A DNA stretch of 64,000 nt from Sphingomonas anseongensis (GTDB lineage Bacteria > Pseudomonadota > Alphaproteobacteria > Sphingomonadales > Sphingomonadaceae). Shown piece after piece: positions 5,863-13,941 of the stretch. The notes beneath the pieces are model-generated. The model was not told where the DNA came from. It searched no databases and saw nothing but the letters and a program-made list of their open reading frames with translations. The stretch lies in NCBI RefSeq assembly GCF_023516495.1, contig NZ_JAMGBC010000001.1, forward strand, positions 2,132,501 to 2,196,500. The letters run 5' to 3'. The number at the start of each line of letters is the position of its first letter. Within the stretch, counting starts at the first letter, position 1. The translations under genes were made by a program, and so were the position numbers.

Positions 5863-5891
5863 TTGACCGGGTCCGCGACATTCCGTTATCA
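5863..5891 (+). promoter_or_regulatory. Predicted sigma-70-type promoter of the trp operon
   Basis: TTGACC at 5863-5868 and TTATCA at 5886-5891 are separated by exactly 17 bases. The -35 box is near consensus and the -10 box weaker. A start of transcription about 7 bases after the -10 would fall at or within three bases of the trpL ATG (5901). The leader message would then be leaderless, as reported for rhizobial trpL. No operator for a TrpR repressor was recognised. Confidence 0.6.
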
Positions 5892-5900
5892 CGCGGGGCA

Positions 5901-5987
5901 ATGGCACATCTGAACGCCACCGCTGCAACTTCGACCGTCCGCTTCTGGTGGCGCGCGTCGACCCTTGCGGCGCGATGGCGCGACTGA
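5901..5987 (+). CDS. trpL: trp operon leader peptide with Trp-Trp codons
   Basis: A 28-codon reading frame sits between a promoter and an intrinsic terminator directly ahead of the trp genes. The peptide starts MAHLNATAATST and contains adjacent tryptophans at residues 16 and 17 (TGG TGG, 5946-5951) and a third at 26. Tryptophan is normally about 1% of residues, so three in 28 is a strong mark of an attenuator peptide. No ribosome binding site precedes the ATG, which fits leaderless translation as known for alphaproteobacterial trpL. Ribosome stalling at the Trp codons would decide whether the terminator at 6018 forms. The reading-frame identity is good; the regulatory mechanism is inferred. 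Confidence 0.8.
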   Translation: MAHLNATAATSTVRFWWRASTLAARWRD

Positions 5988-6017
5988 TCGACTAAGCAAC
6001 CGATCAATCGACTGCCC

Positions 6018-6040
6018 GCCCGCCACCGGCGGGCTTTTTT
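6018..6040 (+). terminator. Intrinsic terminator acting as trp attenuator
   Basis: A perfect 7-base-pair stem (6018-6024 with 6028-6034) of G and C closes a 3-base loop and is followed by six T. It lies 31 bases after the trpL stop and 15 bases before trpD. A competing strand exists: 5967-5972 can pair with 6017-6023 with one bulged C, and would disrupt the terminator. 5952-5956 can pair with 5970-5974 and would occupy that competing strand. A small hairpin (5985-5990 with 6001-6006) lies between them. Confidence 0.8.
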
Positions 6041-6054
6041 GTTTCAGGTGACTA

Positions 6055-7128
6055 ATGCCCAGTCTAGTTTCCGTGTCCCCGAGTTTCTCGACGCCTCATC
6101 CGATTCCGGCTGAGCGCCAGGTCGAGCACACAATCGCACGCCTGCTCGATCGCCAGGATCTCGATCGAGAAGAGGCGCGCGCGGTCTTCACCGAACTGGT
6201 CGAAGGACGCCTGCCCGAGCCGTTGATGGCCGCCGCCTTCGTCGCTCTCCGCTTCAAGGGCGAGACAGCACAGGAGCTGACCGGCGCCGCGCTCGCGCTT
6301 CGCCAAGCGGCGCGGCCCTTTCCATCGCCCTCCTATCTGTTCGCGGACAGTTGCGGCACCGGCGGCGACTGCTCCGGATCGATCAACGTTTCAACGGCGG
6401 CCGCAATCGTCGCGGCGGCCTGCGGCCTCCCTGTCGTCAAGCACGGCAACCGTTCCTTCACTTCGAGATGCGGCTCGGCGGATGTGCTCGAGTCGCTAGG
6501 CGCGAAGCTGGATGTCAGCCCCCCAGCTTCGCGCCACCTTCTTGATAAGACCGGCTTCTGCTTCCTCCTGGCGCCCGCCTACCATCCAGGAATCGCGCAC
6601 GCCGGGCCCGTTCGGCGAGCGCTCAGGGTGCGGACGGTGATGAACCTGCTCGGCCCGTGCCTGAACCCGGCCAAGCCGAGGGTCCAGCTGCTGGGGGTTC
6701 CTCATCCGGACCTGCTGATTCCGATCGCGGAAACATTGCGGGCGCTCGGAGTGAAGCGGGCGCTCGTCGTCCATGGTTCCGGGCTCGACGAAATCGCGGT
6801 CCACGCCTTCACCCGCGCGGTCCGGCTGGTCGACGGCGAGCTGGAAACGGTCGAGATCACTCCCGAGCAGGCAGGCCTGCCCCGCTTCGACCTGGAGTCG
6901 ATCGGCGGTGGAGAGCCGGCTGAAAACGCGCAGCTGCTCACCGATATCCTGGACGGACGCGGTTCCGACGCGCAGCGGTCGATCGTGGCGATCAACGCCG
7001 GAGCGCTGCTCGAGATCGCGGGCGTCGCCGACGACCTTCGCGACGGAGTCGAGCGTGCGTTCGACGCCATCTCCACCGGGAGTGCACGGCGGCTGCTCGA
7101 TGATTTCATCGAGGGCAGCCGTGGCTGA
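6055..7128 (+). CDS. trpD: Anthranilate phosphoribosyltransferase
   Basis: This enzyme joins anthranilate to phosphoribosyl pyrophosphate, the second committed step to tryptophan. The 357-residue protein has the GTGGD loop at 101-105 (here GTGGDC where GTGGDG is usual), the KHGNR motif at 129-133 and the LLGPCLNPA segment. Stretches such as YLFADSCGTGGD, IVAAACGLPVVKHGNRS and PIAETLRALG resemble the TrpD half of enteric TrpGD more than typical alphaproteobacterial TrpD, but no glutaminase (TrpG) domain is attached. An AGGTG site precedes the ATG. It is the first structural gene behind the attenuator, and its stop overlaps the trpCF start by 8 bases. Confidence 0.93.
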   Translation: MPSLVSVSPSFSTPHPIPAERQVEHTIARLLDRQDLDREEARAVFTELVEGRLPEPLMAAAFVALRFKGETAQELTGAALALRQAARPFPSPSYLFADSCGTGGDCSGSINVSTAAAIVAAACGLPVVKHGNRSFTSRCGSADVLESLGAKLDVSPPASRHLLDKTGFCFLLAPAYHPGIAHAGPVRRALRVRTVMNLLGPCLNPAKPRVQLLGVPHPDLLIPIAETLRALGVKRALVVHGSGLDEIAVHAFTRAVRLVDGELETVEITPEQAGLPRFDLESIGGGEPAENAQLLTDILDGRGSDAQRSIVAINAGALLEIAGVADDLRDGVERAFDAISTGSARRLLDDFIEGSRG

Positions 7129-8509
7129 AGGAGTCCTCGCCGAGATCACGGAGTCGAAGCGCTCGGAACTTGCGGGGCGTCTCGCCGGAATTGCGCTGGA
7201 TTCGCTTCGGGCACGGGCGCGACCCACCGGCCGAAGCCTCGCCGACGCCCTCTCGCAGCCCGGAAGCCGCTTCATCCTCGAGATCAAGAAAGCCTCGCCC
7301 TCGGCGGGCTCGATCCGGCCCGCCGCCGACGTAAGCGCACTCGCGCGCGGCTATAGCGGCGTCGCCGATGCGCTCAGCGTGCTGACCGAGGAACGTCATT
7401 TTCGTGGTTCTCTCGAGGATCTCGCGCTTGCGAGGCGCGACTTCGACGGTCCGATACTTGCCAAGGATTTCTTCCTCGATCCGCGGCAGGTGGTGGAGGC
7501 GCGCATCGCGGGCGCCGACGCCGTCCTGGTCATGCTTTCCCTCGTGGACGACTCGCTGGCCGCAGAGTTGATCGCCGAGGCGCGCCGGGTCGGAATGGAC
7601 GCGCTGGTCGAGGTCCACGACGAGTGCGAAATGCGGCGCGCCAATGCGCTCGGCGCCAACATCATCGGCATCAACAATCGCGACCTTCGCGATCTTTCGA
7701 TCGACCTCAGGACCACCGAGCGCCTGGCGCACCTTGCGCGCAGCCGCGTCGTCGTTGCCGAATCCGGGATCCGCTCGAGCGAAGACGTGGAGCGGTTGTC
7801 GAGGCACGTCGATGCATTCCTGGTCGGAAGCTCGCTTATGGCCTCCGACAGCCCGGCCGAGGCGGCTCGAAAGCTGGTGTTTGGGCGGGTGAAGATGTGC
7901 GGCTTGCGCCAGCCGGAGGACGTACTTGCAGCTGCTCCGGCTACCTTCGCCGGATTCGTTTTCGTGCCTGGAAGCCCGCGCCACCTTACCGCCGAGGCCG
8001 CTGCCCCGCTGGCCGGGGTGGTCCGCAAGCGAGGGATGCTTCCGGTTGGGATCTTCAAGAACGCTCCGAGCGGGATCGTCACCGACATTGCGACGCTGCT
8101 CAACCTCCACGCGATCCAGCTTCACGGTATCGAGGACGAGACCTATGTGAGGCGTATCCGGCGCTCGCTAGCCGACCAATGCGAAGTGTGGACCGCGGTC
8201 CCCGTGGGCACGAGCAGCGCGATCGGTTTTCGAGGCGGCGATCGCACCTTGTTCGACAGCGGGCCGGGGGGGACCGGACGAAGCTTCGATTGGAGAATTG
8301 TCGGCGGAAGCGCGCGGCTCCCGCGGGCGCTGCTCGCCGGCGGCATCGGCGCCGCGAATGCACGGGCTGCGGCCGCGGTCGGCGCTTATGCGATCGACGT
8401 CGGTTCTTCCGCCGACGCGCTCCCCGGCGTGAAGTCGGAGCGAAAGATCCGCGCGCTGTTCGAAGCCCTCCGGCCGGACTCCAGGCAGGAGCAGCGCCTG
8501 TGCGCCTGA
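7121..8509 (+). CDS. trpCF: Bifunctional indole-3-glycerol phosphate synthase / phosphoribosylanthranilate isomerase
   Basis: One 462-residue chain carries two TIM-barrel enzymes. Residues 1-255 are TrpC ([47 protein letters not shown]). Residues 257-462 are TrpF ([29 protein letters not shown]). The chain length and domain order match the fused enzyme of E. coli (about 453 residues). Many local blocks are nearly the enteric ones, for example [13 protein letters not shown]. Most alphaproteobacteria keep trpC and trpF as separate genes, so the fusion stands out. The GTG at 7121 is chosen for overlap with trpD; an in-frame ATG at 7100 is the alternative. The stop overlaps the trpB start. Confidence 0.93.
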
Positions 8510-9675
8510 ATGGCCGCTTCGGCCGGTTCGGGGGCTGCTACGTCCCCGAAATCCTGGTTCCCGCACTCGAGCAGCTCGAGGCCGCCTTCCTCGATGCGCA
8601 GGACGACCCAGCTTTCGCCGCCGAGCTCAACGAGTTGCTTGCCAATTACGCCGGCCGTCCGACTCCGCTGACCCGCTGCCGCAATCTTCCCGGCAACATC
8701 TATCTGAAGCGCGAAGACCTGCTTCACGGCGGTGCGCACAAGACCAACCAGGTGCTTGCCCAGGCGCTGCTCGCTCGCAGGATGGGGAAGCGCCGACTGA
8801 TCGCCGAGACCGGGGCTGGTCAGCACGGAGTGGCGACCGCGATCGCGGGCTCGCTGCTCGGGTTCGAGACGGCCGTCTACATGGGCGCCGACGACGTCGA
8901 GCGGCAGAAGCTCAACGTCTTCCGGATGGAATTGATGGGCGCTCAAGTCGTGCCGGTGGAAAGCGGCGGGCGCACCCTCAAGGATGCGATCAACGAGGCG
9001 CTCCGCGACTGGTCGGCGAGCTTCGGGCACACGCATTATCTGCTCGGCACCGCCGCCGGCCCGCACCCATTCCCGCTGATGGTTCGCGAGTTCCAGCGGG
9101 TGATCGGGCGCGAGGCTCGCGCGCAGGTGATCGAGCAGGCGGGCAGGCTTCCCGACGCGGCCATCGCCTGCGTCGGCGGCGGATCGAACGCGATCGGGCT
9201 GTTTTCCGAATTCCTCGACGACGACGTTCGGCTGATCGGCGTCGAAGCGGCGGGTCGTGGCCTCGACGGCACTCACCATGGCGCGACCCTGCTGCGCGGC
9301 CGCGAGGGGATTCTCCACGGAGCGCAGACCTATGTGCTTCAAGACAAAGACGGGCAGATCGCCGACAGCTGGTCAGTCTCGGCGGGTCTGGATTATCCCG
9401 CCGTCGGTCCCGAGCATGCGCATCTCAAGGAAAGCGGCCGCGCCGAATATGTCGCGGCGAGCGATTCCGAAGCGCTCGACGCCTTCTCCTTGCTGGCGAG
9501 GTCGGAAGGGATCCTCTGCGCGTTCGAATCCGCGCACGCGCTCGCTCATGCGCTCAAGCTCGCGAGGCAGGACCCGGAGCTGCTGCTCGTCGTCGGGCTG
9601 TCCGGCCGCGGCGATAAGGATGTGTCTCAGGCGCAGCACCTGCTCGACGCTGCTGCGGCAAAGGCCGCCGCATGA
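8500..9675 (+). CDS. trpB: Tryptophan synthase beta chain
   Basis: A 391-residue PLP enzyme that condenses indole with serine. The Schiff-base lysine is K81 in [16 protein letters not shown], and the phosphate-binding loop [12 protein letters not shown] and the LSGRGDKD ending are intact. The sequence runs close to enteric TrpB throughout ([42 protein letters not shown]). The start is a GTG at 8500, overlapping the trpCF stop by 10 bases, with AGGAG about 9 bases upstream; the next possible start would lose the [10 protein letters not shown] region. Its stop overlaps trpA by 4 bases (ATGA). Confidence 0.95.
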
Positions 9676-10505
9676 GCCGCTACGCGCAAATGTTCGATCG
9701 CCTCGGAGAGCAAGGCGAAGGCGCGTTCGGCGCTTTCGTGATGCTCGGCGATCCTGATCCCCTGACCAGCGCTCGAGTCCTGGATGCGCTGGTGCTCGGC
9801 GGTGCGGACATGATCGAAGTCGGGATCCCCTTTTCCGACCCGGTCGCAGACGGACCGGTCATACAGGCGGCCGCGAACCGCTCTTTATGTGCCGGAGTCC
9901 GCACCGCCGATTGTCTCGACCTCATCGCAGGATTCCGATCGCTCCATCCGCAGGTGCCCATCGGAATTCTGACCTACGCGAACCTGGTGATGGCGCGCGG
10001 CCGCCGGAATTTCTTCGAGTGCGCGGCAGAGGCCGGCGCCGATAGCCTGCTGGTCGCCGACCTGCCGTCGCTGGAAGCGGAGCCGTGGGCCAACGAGATG
10101 CTGGAAGCTGGGATCGAGCCGGTGCTGATCGCAGCCGCAACTACGCCTCCGCAAGCGCTTCGAATGATCGCTCGGCTGTCGTCCGGCTACACCTATTGCG
10201 TCAGCCGCCGGGGCATCACGGGTACCCATCAGTCTGGCTGCTTCGATCCCACTCTGGTCGATAGGCTTCGCGATCTCGGCGCTGCGCCGCCGGTGTTCGG
10301 CTTCGGGATTTCAAAGCCGAGCCATGTCCGCGAGGCGCTCGCTGCTGGGGCGGCCGGAGTCATCGCGGGCTCGGCAATCGTGTCGGCCGCAGCGGACGCA
10401 TCGTCTCCCGCAGCGGCGGTCGCGCCGCTCGTCTCCGAGCTCAAAGCGGCCACGCGCCGCGATCCGTCGTGCCAACGGAACGAGTCTTACGCCCAAGCGG
10501 TTTGA
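9672..10505 (+). CDS. trpA: Tryptophan synthase alpha chain
   Basis: A 277-residue TIM barrel that cleaves indole-3-glycerol phosphate and channels indole to TrpB. The catalytic residues E49 ([11 protein letters not shown]) and D60 (PVADGP) are present at the enteric positions, and [10 protein letters not shown] and GVIAGSAIV form the phosphate site. It is a few residues longer than the enteric protein because of a polar tail ([16 protein letters not shown]). It is translationally coupled to trpB by an ATGA overlap and is the last trp gene. The ku gene follows after 28 bases on the same strand. Confidence 0.94.
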
Positions 10506-10533: not shown

Positions 10534-11439
10534 ATGGCAGCCCGCCCAATTTGGCGAGGACAGATCCGGCTCGCGCTCGTGTCGATTCCTGTCGAGCTTT
10601 ATCCGGCCACCAAGAGTGGCGCGTCGATCCAATTCCACCAGGTCCACGAGCCCAGCGGCAAGAGGATCAAGTATGAAAAGGTGGTACCGGGGATCGGCCC
10701 GGTCGACCGCGACGAGATCATGAAGGGCTATGAGGTCTCCAAGGGCCATTACGTCCTGCTCGACCCGGAAGAAATCGAGAAGGTGAAGCTGGAGAGCAAG
10801 AAGACTCTCGACCTCGTCCAGTTCGTCGACGTGGGTGACATCGACGCGATGTATTTCGAAAAGCCTTATTATGTCGCTCCGGCGGACGACCTCGCCGAGG
10901 ACGCGTTCATCGTTCTGCGCGATGCCCTTCGAAAGTCGAAGAAGGTCGGGATCGGCCAATTGGCGATGCGCGGACAGGAATATGTGGTCGCCATCAAGCC
11001 GTGCGGTCGCGGCATCCTGCTCGAGACGCTCCGCTATGCCGACGAGGTCCACAAGGCGAACAGCTATTTCCGCGAGATCGGCGATTCGAAGCCGGACGAG
11101 GACATGCTCGACCTCGCATCGATGCTGATCGAGAAGAAGACGGGCAAGTTCGACGCGTCCGAATTCCACAACCGCTACATCGATGCGCTCAAGGAGCTCA
11201 TCAAGGAGAAGCAGAAGGCCAAGGGCGAAAAGGTGATCCAGGATCCGGATGCTGATGCCGCGCCGCCCAAGGGCTCCAACGTGATCGACCTCATGGCCGC
11301 GCTCAAGAAAAGCCTCGAGGCCGGGGGCGGCGGCGGAGCTGCGAAGGACAAGCCGAAAGCCAAGCCGGCGCCTCGGTCAAAGGCCCGGCCGCGATCGACC
11401 GGGACCGCGAAGAAAAAAGCGGCGGGCGGCCGCAAGTAA
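10534..11439 (+). CDS. ku: Ku protein of bacterial non-homologous end joining
   Basis: A 301-residue Ku homodimer subunit that caps double-strand DNA ends and recruits LigD. The Ku core opens RPIWRGQIRLALVSIPVELY and includes FHQVHEPSGKRIKYEKVVPG and LLDPEEIEKVKLESKKT. The C-terminal 60 residues are a Lys/Ala/Pro-rich tail (KAKPAPRSKARPRS) as in bacterial Ku proteins, likely for DNA binding. An AGGAG site lies 9 bases before the ATG. Only 3 bases separate its stop from ligD, so the two form an operon. The 28-base gap to trpA leaves open readthrough from the trp promoter. Confidence 0.95.
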   Translation: MAARPIWRGQIRLALVSIPVELYPATKSGASIQFHQVHEPSGKRIKYEKVVPGIGPVDRDEIMKGYEVSKGHYVLLDPEEIEKVKLESKKTLDLVQFVDVGDIDAMYFEKPYYVAPADDLAEDAFIVLRDALRKSKKVGIGQLAMRGQEYVVAIKPCGRGILLETLRYADEVHKANSYFREIGDSKPDEDMLDLASMLIEKKTGKFDASEFHNRYIDALKELIKEKQKAKGEKVIQDPDADAAPPKGSNVIDLMAALKKSLEAGGGGGAAKDKPKAKPAPRSKARPRSTGTAKKKAAGGRK

Positions 11440-11442
11440 GCA

Positions 11443-13941
11443 ATGGCCTCGCGCAAGCTCGACATCGACACCTACAACCGCAAGCGCGACTTCTCGAAGA
11501 CGAAGGAGCCCAAGGGCCGCAAGCTCAAGGGGAAGGGCGACAGCTTCGTCGTCCAGAAGCACGACGCCTCGCACCTCCATTACGATTTCCGACTGGAGAT
11601 GGACGGCGTGCTCAAGAGCTGGGCGGTACCCAAGGGCCCGAGCCTCGACCCGGCCGAAAAGCGGCTGGCGATGCGCACCGAGGATCACCCGCTCGACTAT
11701 GGCGGTTTCGAAGGGACGATCCCCGCCGGGGAATATGGCGGCGGCACCGTCATGTTGTGGGATCAGGGCCGCTGGATTCCCGAGCCCGGCAAGGACCCCC
11801 GCAAGACAATCGAGGAGGGGCATCTACACTTCACGCTCGAAGGCGACCGGATGAAGGGCGAGTGGGTGATGTTCCGCTTGAAGCCGCGGCCGGGCGACAA
11901 GCGCGAGACATGGATGCTCAAGAAGGTCACCGACGCATATGCCAATGCGGAGAATGGCGACGAGCTGGTCGATGAAGCCGTGACCAGCGTGACCACCGGT
12001 CGCACCATGGCGGAGATCGCGTCGGGGGAGGACGTCTGGCGATCCAACCGCCGCGGGCAGAAGGGCGGGCGGGCGAAGAAGAAAGCTGCCGACGCGCCGC
12101 CCGCTTTCGTCTCGCCGCAAAAGGCGACTTTGGTCGACGAGGTCCCGGCGGGGTCGGACTGGTTGTTCGAGTATAAATATGACGGCTACCGGCTGCTGAT
12201 CGCGACCGGCAGCGGCGCCGCGACGGCCTGGACGCGCAACGGCAAGGACTGGAGCGACAAGTTCCGGGCGCTGGTGAAGGCAGCCGCGAACCTCCCGCCC
12301 GGATGCCTGATCGACGGCGAGGCCGCGGCGCTCAACGACGAGGGCAAGCCCGACTTCCAGCTACTTCAATCAACGCTCAAGGAAAGCCGCGGCAAGAACC
12401 TCGTCTTCTACGCCTTCGACCTGCTCGTCGATCGCGGCGAGGACATCCGCAAGCTTCCCAACATCGAGCGCAAGGCGCGGCTGGCGAAGCTGCTGGAGAA
12501 TGCGCCGTCGGTGATCCTGTTCGGCGACCATGTGGTCGGCAAGGGCGAGGCGCTGTTCAACGCCATATGCGCCGAGGGCGGCGAGGGCGTAATCGCCAAG
12601 AAGGCAAGCGCGCCCTACCGCAGCGAGCGGACCAAGAACTGGCTGAAGATCAAGTGCATCCAGCGCCAGGAATTCGTCATCGTCGGCTGGTCGGAAAGCG
12701 ACCGGCGAGTCGGCTTCCGCTCCTTGCTCCTGGCCGCGAAGGAGCACGGCAAGCTCACCTACGTCGGCAAGGTGGGCACCGGCTTCAACACGCAGATGCT
12801 CCACGATTTGATGGACATGATGGAGTCGCTGGAGACGAAGGAGGCCCCGGTCGAAGTACCGCGAGCCGACCGCAAGGGCGCGCATTACATCCGCCCGGAG
12901 CTGGTTTGCGAGGTGGCCTTCACCGAGTTCACGACCGAGGGTATCCTTCGCCACCCGAGCTTCATCGCGCTCCGCGAGGACAAGCCGGCGAGCCAAGTGG
13001 TGGTCGAGACGCCCAAGAAGCTGTCCAAGGTCACGAAGAAGGCGGGCGCGAAGGCGCGCGAGCACCCGACTCCGGAAAGCTTCGGGATCACGATCAGCAA
13101 CCCTGACCGGGCGATCTACCCGACCGAGAAGATCACCAAGTACGAGCTCGCCTCTTATTATGCGGCGGTCGACCCGTTGCTGATGCCCGACGTGGCGAAC
13201 CGTCCCATCACATTGATCCGCTGCCCGCAGGGACGCGCCAAGAAATGCTTCTTCCAGAAGCACGACACCGGATCGATGGGCGAGGACGTCAAGCACGTGC
13301 CCATCCGCGAGAAGAAGGGCGAGGTTCAGGACTATCTCTACTTCGACGACATCCGCGGAGTGCTGTCCTGCGTGCAGATGGGGACGATCGAATTCCACGG
13401 CTGGGGAAGCCGCGCGGACAAGGTCGAATTTCCCGACCGGCTCGTCTTCGATCTCGACCCCGACGAGGGACTCGATTTCGGCGCGGTCAGGGACGCCGCG
13501 CGGCGGCTTCGCGGGCTGCTAAAGGATCTTGGCCTCGAAACCTTCCCGATGCTGACCGGGGGCAAGGGCATCCACGTCATCGCGCCGCTCGACGCATCGG
13601 CCGATTGGGATGCGGTGACCAGCTTCGCCGAGCGCTTCTCGCGCGCCGTGTCGGAAGCCGAGCCGGAGCGGTTCACAGCCAACATGCGCAAGGTGCAGCG
13701 CAAGGGCCGCATCTTCCTCGACTGGCTGCGCAACCAGCGCGGGTCGACCGCGGTCATGCCTTATTCGGCGCGAGCCCGGGAAGGCGCTCCGGTCGCCGCC
13801 CCGATCGCCTGGGACGAGCTCGACGATTACGAAGGCGGCAACGCCTTCACCATCCGCGAGCTCGACCTCCTTTTCGAGCGATCGGAATCCAAGTTCCTGA
13901 AAGGCTGGGGACAGGCGAAGCAGGCGCTGCCAAAAGCCTGA
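11443..13941 (+). CDS. ligD: Multifunctional ATP-dependent DNA ligase LigD (phosphoesterase-ligase-polymerase)
   Basis: An 832-residue enzyme with the three NHEJ modules in the order seen in Pseudomonas and rhizobia. The 3'-phosphoesterase is at about 20-180 (HDASHLHYDFRLEMDG, GEYGGGTVMLWD). The ATP-dependent ligase is at about 215-520 with adenylation lysine K245 in EYKYDGYR and the later DGEAAAL and EGVIAKK motifs. The primase-like polymerase starts at about 545 (ISNPDRAIYPTEKITKYELA) and carries the metal-binding DLDPDEG. All catalytic motifs look intact. It seals ends brought together by Ku after gap filling. No ribosome site separates it from ku, so it may be coupled. Confidence 0.95.
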   Translation: MASRKLDIDTYNRKRDFSKTKEPKGRKLKGKGDSFVVQKHDASHLHYDFRLEMDGVLKSWAVPKGPSLDPAEKRLAMRTEDHPLDYGGFEGTIPAGEYGGGTVMLWDQGRWIPEPGKDPRKTIEEGHLHFTLEGDRMKGEWVMFRLKPRPGDKRETWMLKKVTDAYANAENGDELVDEAVTSVTTGRTMAEIASGEDVWRSNRRGQKGGRAKKKAADAPPAFVSPQKATLVDEVPAGSDWLFEYKYDGYRLLIATGSGAATAWTRNGKDWSDKFRALVKAAANLPPGCLIDGEAAALNDEGKPDFQLLQSTLKESRGKNLVFYAFDLLVDRGEDIRKLPNIERKARLAKLLENAPSVILFGDHVVGKGEALFNAICAEGGEGVIAKKASAPYRSERTKNWLKIKCIQRQEFVIVGWSESDRRVGFRSLLLAAKEHGKLTYVGKVGTGFNTQMLHDLMDMMESLETKEAPVEVPRADRKGAHYIRPELVCEVAFTEFTTEGILRHPSFIALREDKPASQVVVETPKKLSKVTKKAGAKAREHPTPESFGITISNPDRAIYPTEKITKYELASYYAAVDPLLMPDVANRPITLIRCPQGRAKKCFFQKHDTGSMGEDVKHVPIREKKGEVQDYLYFDDIRGVLSCVQMGTIEFHGWGSRADKVEFPDRLVFDLDPDEGLDFGAVRDAARRLRGLLKDLGLETFPMLTGGKGIHVIAPLDASADWDAVTSFAERFSRAVSEAEPERFTANMRKVQRKGRIFLDWLRNQRGSTAVMPYSARAREGAPVAAPIAWDELDDYEGGNAFTIRELDLLFERSESKFLKGWGQAKQALPKA

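What the first reader, a model, noticed from the sequence alone, without database searches (positions are those of the whole stretch)
5863..6040. Leaderless trp attenuator with a Trp-Trp leader peptide ahead of trpD
Seen directly: a 17-base-spaced promoter whose start would fall at the ATG, a 28-codon frame with TGG TGG at 5946-5951 and a third TGG at 5976, then a 7-bp GC terminator with six T, then trpD. Known: leaderless trpL with a Trp stretch is described for rhizobial trpE(G), and in E. coli trpL precedes trpE. Here it precedes trpD. Candidate alternative pairs are 5952-5956 with 5970-5974, and 5967-5972 with 6017-6023. The Trp-codon strand itself (5946-5953) can also pair with 6021-6028, and an identical CGCCACCG occurs at 5915-5922, so the switch may be more complex than the textbook one. 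That part is inference.
Basis: partly seen in the sequence, partly recalled or inferred. Interest (0 to 1): 0.7.

Follow-up and report, generated by a model that had tools for sequence, protein, structure and literature searches.

The report
Tryptophan attenuator on a salvage operon
A tryptophan-sensing RNA switch sits in front of the late tryptophan genes of a sphingomonad that appears to have lost the early steps of the pathway, so it probably controls the making of tryptophan from a scavenged or recycled intermediate.

Summary
Window 5901-5987 encodes MAHLNATAATSTVRFWWRASTLAARWRD, then a GC hairpin, six T and trpD. In 61 genomes (own plus 60 of its genus) the element lies directly before trpD in 44, before aroF-trpE-trpG-trpD in 13, at neither place in 4. 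Folding gives a consistent switch: antiterminator 5967-5990 with 6001-6023 against terminator 6014-6034; covariation is scant. Promoter-to-ATG spacing suggests a near-leaderless mRNA.

'Before trpD' is explained by gene order: 13 relatives keep trpL-aroF-trpE-trpG-trpD, 17 have a second leader before a separate trpE gene. The window's genome has no match for TrpE/PabB, chorismate synthase or DHQ synthase, yet has kynureninase. Within the genus kynureninase tracks trpE loss: 14 of 16 trpE-less against 1 of 21 trpE-bearing genomes; this is not independent of kinship, and in other families trpE-bearing genomes often have kynureninase too.

Verdict: a ribosome-mediated trp attenuator, new variant of a known kind, on an anthranilate-to-Trp operon of an apparent aromatic auxotroph. 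Nearest precedent: Chlamydia caviae/felis/pecorum (PMC3937554, passages).

The parts
5863..5892 (+). Promoter-like pair: TTGACC 5863-5868 and TTATCA/TATCAC 5886-5892
   Evidence: Seen directly. Missed by the strict scan. TTGAC in at least 90% and TA of the -10 in all of the 16 rows of A1; in 15 of the 15 close-clade loci scripted, TTGAC plus a 17-18 base spacer, first in-frame start 2-10 bases after the -10; but no promoter-like pair in 26 of all 49 loci scripted.
5901..5987 (+). Leader ORF trpL, 28 codons, MAHLNATAATSTVRFWWRASTLAARWRD
   Evidence: Codon-level support outside the Trp codons is weak: synonymous share 0.197 in frame against 0.133 and 0.167 out of frame.
5946..5951 (+). Control Trp-Trp codons
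   Evidence: Kept in 15 of 16 close sequences; the exception (G045, L004) reads W-C.
5915..5980 (+). 1:2 hairpin that forms without a ribosome; conserved core 5921-5927 with 5966-5972
   Evidence: MFE of the full leader; core helix in the RNAalifold consensus of 16 sequences.
5967..5990 (+). Strand 2 (antiterminator 5' half); holds the third Trp codon and the stop codon
   Evidence: 23 of 24 columns invariant in 16 sequences, including three bases after the stop codon.
6001..6023 (+). Strand 3 (antiterminator 3' half, overlaps the terminator 5' arm)
   Evidence: Pairs with 5967-5990, -25.6 kcal/mol for 5961-6027; at least 4 bases of the terminator 5' arm pair with strand 2 in 37 of 37 trpD-type and 11 of 11 trpE-type leaders tested.
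6014..6040 (+). Intrinsic terminator: GCCCGCCCGCC ACC GGCGGGC, then T6 (two registers)
   Evidence: the same GCCCGCCCGCC arm and GGCGGG(C/T) arm in 16 of 16.
6055..7128 (+). trpD, anthranilate phosphoribosyltransferase, 357 aa
   Evidence: PF00591 296.6 bits; intact ORF.
7121..8509 (+). Fused trpCF (start GTG 7121 overlaps the trpD stop)
   Evidence: ORF; tblastn to relatives.
8507..9675 (+). trpB (start approximate)
   Evidence: ORF frame ending at 9675; tblastn.
9672..10505 (+). trpA, overlaps the end of trpB
   Evidence: ORF; tblastn.

Best explanation
It is a ribosome-mediated (class of E. coli trpL) tryptophan attenuator. Transcription starts at or within a few bases of the leader ATG, so the leader is translated as a near-leaderless mRNA. 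With little charged tRNA-Trp the ribosome stalls at codons 16-17 (5946-5951), strand 2 (5967-5990) is free to pair with 6001-6023, the terminator cannot form, and trpD-trpCF-trpB-trpA is transcribed. With enough Trp the ribosome runs to the stop at 5985, covers strand 2, and the terminator 6014-6034 forms. Without translation the 1:2 hairpin hides strand 2 and the terminator forms by default. The third Trp codon lies inside strand 2, so a stall there would mask strand 2; it is probably kept for the RNA pairing rather than for sensing. The operon it controls starts at trpD because the aroF-trpE-trpG block has been lost; the genome has no anthranilate synthase and no sign of the chorismate route, so the operon most likely turns anthranilate from outside, or from kynurenine by kynureninase, into Trp. 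Shown here: sequence, conservation, gene order, gene absence and presence in the assembly. Inferred: start site, ribosome positions, Trp response, source of anthranilate.
For: Leader, tandem Trp codons, terminator and trpD in order. Fold z -4.88. Conserved in 57 of 61 genus genomes at a trp operon (44 directly before trpD, 13 before aroF-trpE-trpG-trpD). Of 13 same-genus genomes not used to build the model, 10 carry it at trpD or trpE. Antiterminator pairing in 48 of 48 leaders folded, mean z -2.43 for 37 trpD-type and -0.99 for 11 trpE-type. 23 of 24 strand-2 columns invariant. No TrpE, PabB, AroC or AroB match in the own genome, where control genomes ring in 14, 14, 14 and 11 of 14 for the four families. 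Kynureninase over its curated cut-off (273.6 against 246.4 bits; KYNU_C) and a Trp dioxygenase match (144.5 and 91.8 bits in one frame).
Against: Duplex energy of strand 2 with the terminator arm alone beats composition shuffles in only 1 of 49 leaders: much of the pairing potential is GC composition. Consensus folding shows little covariation (3 of 34 pairs with a change on both sides, covariation term -1.22), mainly because the elements are invariant. At equilibrium the terminator state is about 5 kcal/mol more stable than the antiterminator state (-30.6 against -25.6), so the switch must be kinetic. No promoter-like pair in 26 of 49 loci. Rfam score below cut-off. Kynurenine link: two trpE-less genomes (G014, G019) lack kynureninase over cut-off; outside the genus many trpE-bearing genomes have it; in the own genome kynU is not in an operon with trp or with the dioxygenase; the genus-wide association rests on at most 2 well-supported independent pairs.
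Confidence: 0.88

Rival explanations
1. Attenuator as above, but the operon does not use kynurenine: it uses anthranilate or indole released by neighbours, and kynureninase serves Trp breakdown or NAD synthesis.
For: A Trp dioxygenase is found in the own genome and 32 of 36 genus relatives whether or not they have kynU; kynU is common in trpE-bearing genomes of other families; G019 has the leader and trpD but neither trpE nor kynU over cut-off; kynU stands apart from trp genes in the own genome.
Against: Within the genus kynU over cut-off goes with trpE loss: 14 of 16 against 1 of 21 (Fisher p 2.7e-7 without correction for kinship).
Confidence: 0.4
2. A relic: the genome imports Trp and the trpDCFBA operon with its attenuator is decaying and no longer matters.
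For: The early pathway is gone; the window TrpD has a long end branch (0.4-0.5); G037 shows a 64-residue TrpE remnant before trpG.
Against: trpD, trpCF, trpB and trpA are intact and overlapping; strand 2 is invariant in 16 sequences, all but one (G012) from genomes without a PF00425 match; 18 of 20 genomes without any PF00425 match keep the leader before trpD.
Confidence: 0.1
3. The leader acts mainly as a small RNA or peptide in trans, like rnTrpL/peTrpL of Sinorhizobium.
For: A terminated leader of about 140 bases would be such an RNA; leaderless trpL RNAs act in trans in S. meliloti (PMC7298713, passages seen).
Against: The conserved part is the switch itself; the peptide N-half varies and shows weak codon-level constraint. 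No target was sought here.
Confidence: 0.08
4. Chance: an ORF with Trp codons and an ordinary terminator of the upstream region.
For: The terminator alone is at chance level (1 against 0.8).
Against: Same element at the same place in 44 of 61 genomes.
Confidence: 0.02

Closest known systems
E. coli-type trpL attenuator (ribosome-mediated; Rfam RF00513 Trp_leader)
   Same: Short leader ORF with tandem Trp codons, antiterminator, terminator, Trp-pathway genes downstream.
   Different: Scores under the Rfam gathering cut-off (24.1 against 41 bits); near-leaderless start; before trpD, not trpE; second Trp site inside strand 2.
Sinorhizobium meliloti trpL/rnTrpL (leaderless, before trpE(G))
   Same: RNA starting at or near the leader ATG, consecutive Trp codons (PMC7298713, passages seen).
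   Different: 14-codon peptide and trpE(G) there; 28 codons and trpD here; trpDC is a separate operon hit in trans there.
Chlamydia caviae/felis/pecorum trp operon with kynU
   Same: trp operon without anthranilate synthase, kynureninase in the genome, possible Trp-Trp leader before the anthranilate phosphoribosyltransferase gene in C. felis (PMC3937554, passages seen).
   Different: trpR and kynU are in the chlamydial operon; no attenuator structure had been reported there at that date; obligate intracellular hosts. Here kynU lies elsewhere, trpR was not searched, and the attenuator is conserved through a genus not known to me as intracellular (recalled).
Other trpL-trpD arrangements: Sphingosinicella, Sorangium, Synergistaceae loci
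   Same: Trp-rich leader directly before trpD with no trpE upstream in the locus (L126, L137, L146; L149, L152, L153, L170; L154, L176, L182).
   Different: Different peptides; whether they have trpE elsewhere was not searched.

Membership tests
Ribosome-mediated trp attenuator | Short leader ORF with tandem Trp codons | tested here: met
   WW in 15 of 16 close sequences.
Ribosome-mediated trp attenuator | Intrinsic terminator between leader ORF and first structural gene | tested here: met
Ribosome-mediated trp attenuator | Mutually exclusive antiterminator that includes the terminator 5' arm | tested here: inconclusive
   Pairing in 48 of 48 folded, but the duplex-only test is at chance in 48 of 49 and covariation is scant.
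Ribosome-mediated trp attenuator | Controls Trp-pathway genes | tested here: met
   trpD-trpCF-trpB-trpA downstream.
Ribosome-mediated trp attenuator | Readthrough rises when charged tRNA-Trp is scarce | not testable with these tools
   Needs RNA or reporter work.
Rfam RF00513 Trp_leader | Score at or over the gathering cut-off | tested here: not met
   24.1 against 41 bits.
Rhizobial leaderless trpL | Transcript begins at the leader ATG | not testable with these tools
   Spacing from the -10 to ATG of 8-9 bases in the window fits.
Rhizobial leaderless trpL | Precedes trpE(G) | tested here: not met
   Precedes trpD; no TrpE match in the genome.
Chlamydial Trp/kynurenine/Trp cycle operon | trp genes without anthranilate synthase | tested here: met
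Chlamydial Trp/kynurenine/Trp cycle operon | Kynureninase in the genome | tested here: met
   273.6 bits over cut-off 246.4; KYNU_C.
Chlamydial Trp/kynurenine/Trp cycle operon | kynU inside the trp operon | tested here: not met
   kynU at C1:1210792, trp at C1:2138555.
Chlamydial Trp/kynurenine/Trp cycle operon | TrpR repressor | not tested
   No search made.

The most novel reading that the evidence does not exclude
In this sphingomonad genus a Trp attenuator acquired with a fused-trpCF operon became a portable, near-leaderless Trp sensor. It was copied before trpD when the operon split, kept when trpE and then the shikimate route were lost, and copied again before uptake-type operons (TauE-like permease plus 2OG-Fe(II) oxygenase; TonB-dependent receptor plus amidohydrolase), making a Trp-hunger regulon that runs a kynurenine-to-anthranilate-to-Trp recycling economy outside any known intracellular niche.
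Probability: 0.3. Interest if true: 0.8.

Novelty: new variant of a known kind. Interest (0 to 1): 0.55.

Why it matters
It shows an end-product attenuator kept for half a pathway: the switch outlives the gene (trpE) that the textbook example controls. It gives a natural series of genomes (contiguous operon; split with two leaders; trpE lost; shikimate genes lost) in which regulation and pathway decay can be followed. It makes the kynurenine recycling idea, so far tied to Chlamydia in what I read, directly testable in sphingomonads, some of them named strains.

Tried and rejected
Rejected: the CGCCACCG repeat as a working part (1 of 16). Rejected as proof: duplex energies of strand 2 with the terminator arm (1 of 49 beyond shuffles); codon-position test of the leader N-half (weak); covariation (3 of 34 pairs). 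R1 matches of low score are unreliable: tRNA-type false matches in L227, L228, L233 and weak matches in 3 of 39 genomes of other families. Tried for the own genome: further leaders with R1 at E up to 10; the second best has 21.5 bits, not followed. The own TauE-like homologue (L262) has no Trp leader within 450 bases upstream. Horizontal transfer of the operon is suggested, not shown: the TrpD tree used hits chosen by likeness to the query plus 20 other-family rows, and 41 of 130 rows were thinned out beforehand. The first scan of relatives misread loci stored on the other strand and was redone. A row was dropped by the distance filter (L051), so 48 of 49 were folded; the misplaced second L033 row was left out of later counts; L055 was left out of alignment A4.

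Papers: PMC3937554 and PMC7298713, passages only; all others, search listings only. Merino et al. 2008 (PMC2387123) is not held and is known to me through the reference list of PMC3937554 and recall; Vitreschak et al. 2004 is recalled only. Searches that gave no paper on trp attenuators of this genus or on Trp leaders before TonB receptors: (listings, capped; this library only).

Full report
What is there. Window 5901-5987 is a 28-codon frame with TGG TGG at codons 16-17 and a third TGG at codon 26, followed by GCCCGCCCGCC-ACC-GGCGGGC and six T, then trpD at 6055. The leader folds at -64.7 kcal/mol, z -4.88 against 200 shuffles. The terminator alone is at chance level for this GC-rich stretch (1 found, mean 0.8 in shuffles) and the strict promoter scan found nothing. 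Rfam's Trp_leader hits the right place on the right strand but below its cut-off (24.1 against 41 bits). By itself this would be suggestive only.

Conservation. The window lies in a 2.23 Mb genome (99.95% complete, 2 contigs). Its genus can be named from equal contig lengths of relatives: Sphingomonas sp. URHD0057, Sphingomonas arenae, Sphingomicrobium astaxanthinifaciens. A model of 48 leaders (R1) was searched in 100 genomes. In own plus 60 same-genus genomes the leader is directly before trpD in 44, before aroF-trpE-trpG-trpD in 13, at neither in 4 (G007, G014, G016, G033). G007 has it before a separate trpE; G014 and G033 gave no trpD match. Of 13 same-genus genomes outside the model, 10 have it at trpD or trpE. 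In the 39 genomes of other families only 3 weak matches occur (E 2.6e-4 to 6.4e-4); three genomes of family f2 (L055, L056, L057) do show Trp-rich leaders before trpD by the script.

Anatomy. In 16 sequences chosen for a like leader (window plus 15), 23 of the 24 bases 5967-5990 are invariant, across the stop codon into non-coding sequence, while the loop that follows varies. That block pairs with 6001-6023, which contains the terminator 5' arm (-25.6 kcal/mol for 5961-6027). In 37 of 37 trpD-type and 11 of 11 trpE-type leaders folded, at least 4 bases of the terminator arm pair with strand 2; mean z -2.43 and -0.99. Against this: the plain duplex of strand 2 with the arm is beyond composition shuffles in 1 of 49, covariation is small, and the finished transcript prefers the terminator by about 5 kcal/mol, so the switch has to act while the RNA is being made. 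The third Trp codon lies inside strand 2, so a ribosome there would mask strand 2; only 5946-5951 fit as control codons (inference).

Start. The -35/-10 pair ends 8-9 bases before the ATG, leaving at most a few untranslated bases and no conserved Shine-Dalgarno site. All 15 close-clade loci scripted show TTGAC with a 17-18 base spacer; 26 of all 49 loci show no such pair by the same script. Near-leaderless start is therefore likely for this clade and untested for the rest.

Why trpD. Thirteen relatives keep aroF-trpE-trpG upstream of trpD with the leader before aroF; four named loci of that order run on into trpCF-trpB-trpA (L125, L131, L132, L140). Seventeen have one leader before trpD and a second before a separate gene with the chorismate-binding domain. 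A search with TrpE separates true TrpE (32 of 61 genomes, E 1e-115 or better) from PabB-like matches (E 1e-25 to 1e-37); 29 of 61 have no TrpE-level match, 26 of these with the leader before trpD. G037 keeps a 64-residue TrpE remnant before trpG, leader and trpD. The likely order of events is leader copied before trpD, trpE moved or lost, then wider loss (inference).

The missing early pathway. The own genome has no match to PF04715, PF00425, PF01264 or PF01761. Across the genus the three states go together: of 20 genomes without PF00425 all 20 lack PF01761 and of 41 with PF00425 all 41 have it; PF01264 is absent from 12 of 12 and present in 25 of 25 examined. Some of these genomes are incomplete, but the own one and several others are 96-100% complete. 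In family f2, G061 and G084 lack the same three families and have kynureninase; G061 also has a Trp leader before trpD. So the operon under the attenuator can only work from anthranilate or later intermediates, unless an unknown anthranilate route exists.

Where anthranilate may come from. Kynureninase is in the own genome over its curated cut-off with the KYNU_C domain, beside dnaB and RNase R type genes, not with trp. Of own plus 36 genus genomes searched it is over cut-off in 14 of 16 trpE-less (not G014, G019) and 1 of 21 trpE-bearing (G028; G010 is just below). Fisher p is 2.7e-7 without regard to kinship; on the TrpD tree only 2 well-supported independent pairs remain, both concordant. 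Outside the genus many trpE-bearing genomes have kynureninase over cut-off, and a Trp dioxygenase is nearly universal in the genus (32 of 36 plus own), so a catabolic role is a fair rival.

Origin. On a TrpD tree of 89 rows (thinned from 130) the genus and Sphingosinicella-type rows form a supported set of 37, apart from a supported set of 17 of the 20 other-family Sphingomonadales rows. The operon has fused trpCF, and aroF-trpE-trpG-trpD order also occurs in Kangiella and other gammaproteobacterial loci. Acquisition by transfer is plausible, not shown.

Paralogues. Leaders like this one also stand before a TauE-like permease and 2OG-Fe(II) oxygenase (G045, G041, G038, G050) and Trp-rich leaders before a TonB-dependent receptor and amidohydrolase (G022, G036, G031; in G043 only the amidohydrolase frame was listed). 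The own genome has the permease (68% identity) without a leader.

Compared with what is known. By mechanism it is the textbook trp attenuator. By Rfam membership it fails the cut-off. It differs from rhizobial trpL in peptide length and target gene, and from the chlamydial trp/kynU operon in having kynU elsewhere (PMC7298713, PMC3937554, passages). The element is therefore a new variant of a known kind; the metabolic setting is the more interesting part.

Noticed in passing
L221 (G045), L222 (G041), L223 (G038), L229 (G050): A near-copy of the trpD leader (e.g. MTHLNAIAASSTFRLWWRGATLAARWRD) precedes a TauE/SafE-like permease gene and a 2OG-Fe(II) oxygenase gene; the permease occurs in 17 of 100 genomes searched, 13 of them without PF00425.
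   Followed up: partly
L224 (G022), L225 (G036), L226 (G031), L235 (G043): Trp-rich leaders (WRWR) with a GC terminator precede a TonB-dependent receptor and an amidohydrolase gene in genomes without PF00425 (in L235 only the amidohydrolase frame was listed).
   Followed up: partly
L161, L167, L168, L175, L181, L183, L184, L186, L189, L190, L191, L197-L199 (Pseudoalteromonas) and L171, L173, L178, L192, L193 (Kangiella): Two Trp-Trp-Trp leader ORFs in tandem, most followed by a GC hairpin and T-run, before trpE or aroF (19 of 80 loci): possible double trp attenuators.
   Followed up: no
L149, L152, L153, L170 (Sorangium); L154, L176, L182 (Synergistaceae); L126, L137, L146 (Sphingosinicella): Trp-rich leader directly before trpD without trpE upstream in the locus: trpL-trpD is found well outside this genus.
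   Followed up: no
G061 and G084 (family f2): Genomes of another family with no PF00425, PF01264 or PF01761 match but kynureninase over cut-off; G061 also has a Trp leader before trpD.
   Followed up: partly
G037:C83:4870-5070: A 64-residue TrpE C-terminal remnant before trpG, leader and trpD: a trace of trpE decay.
   Followed up: no
window 10534-13941: Next to the trp operon lie ORFs that look like Ku and an ATP-dependent LigD-type ligase (recognised by eye from the translations; no family search made).
   Followed up: no
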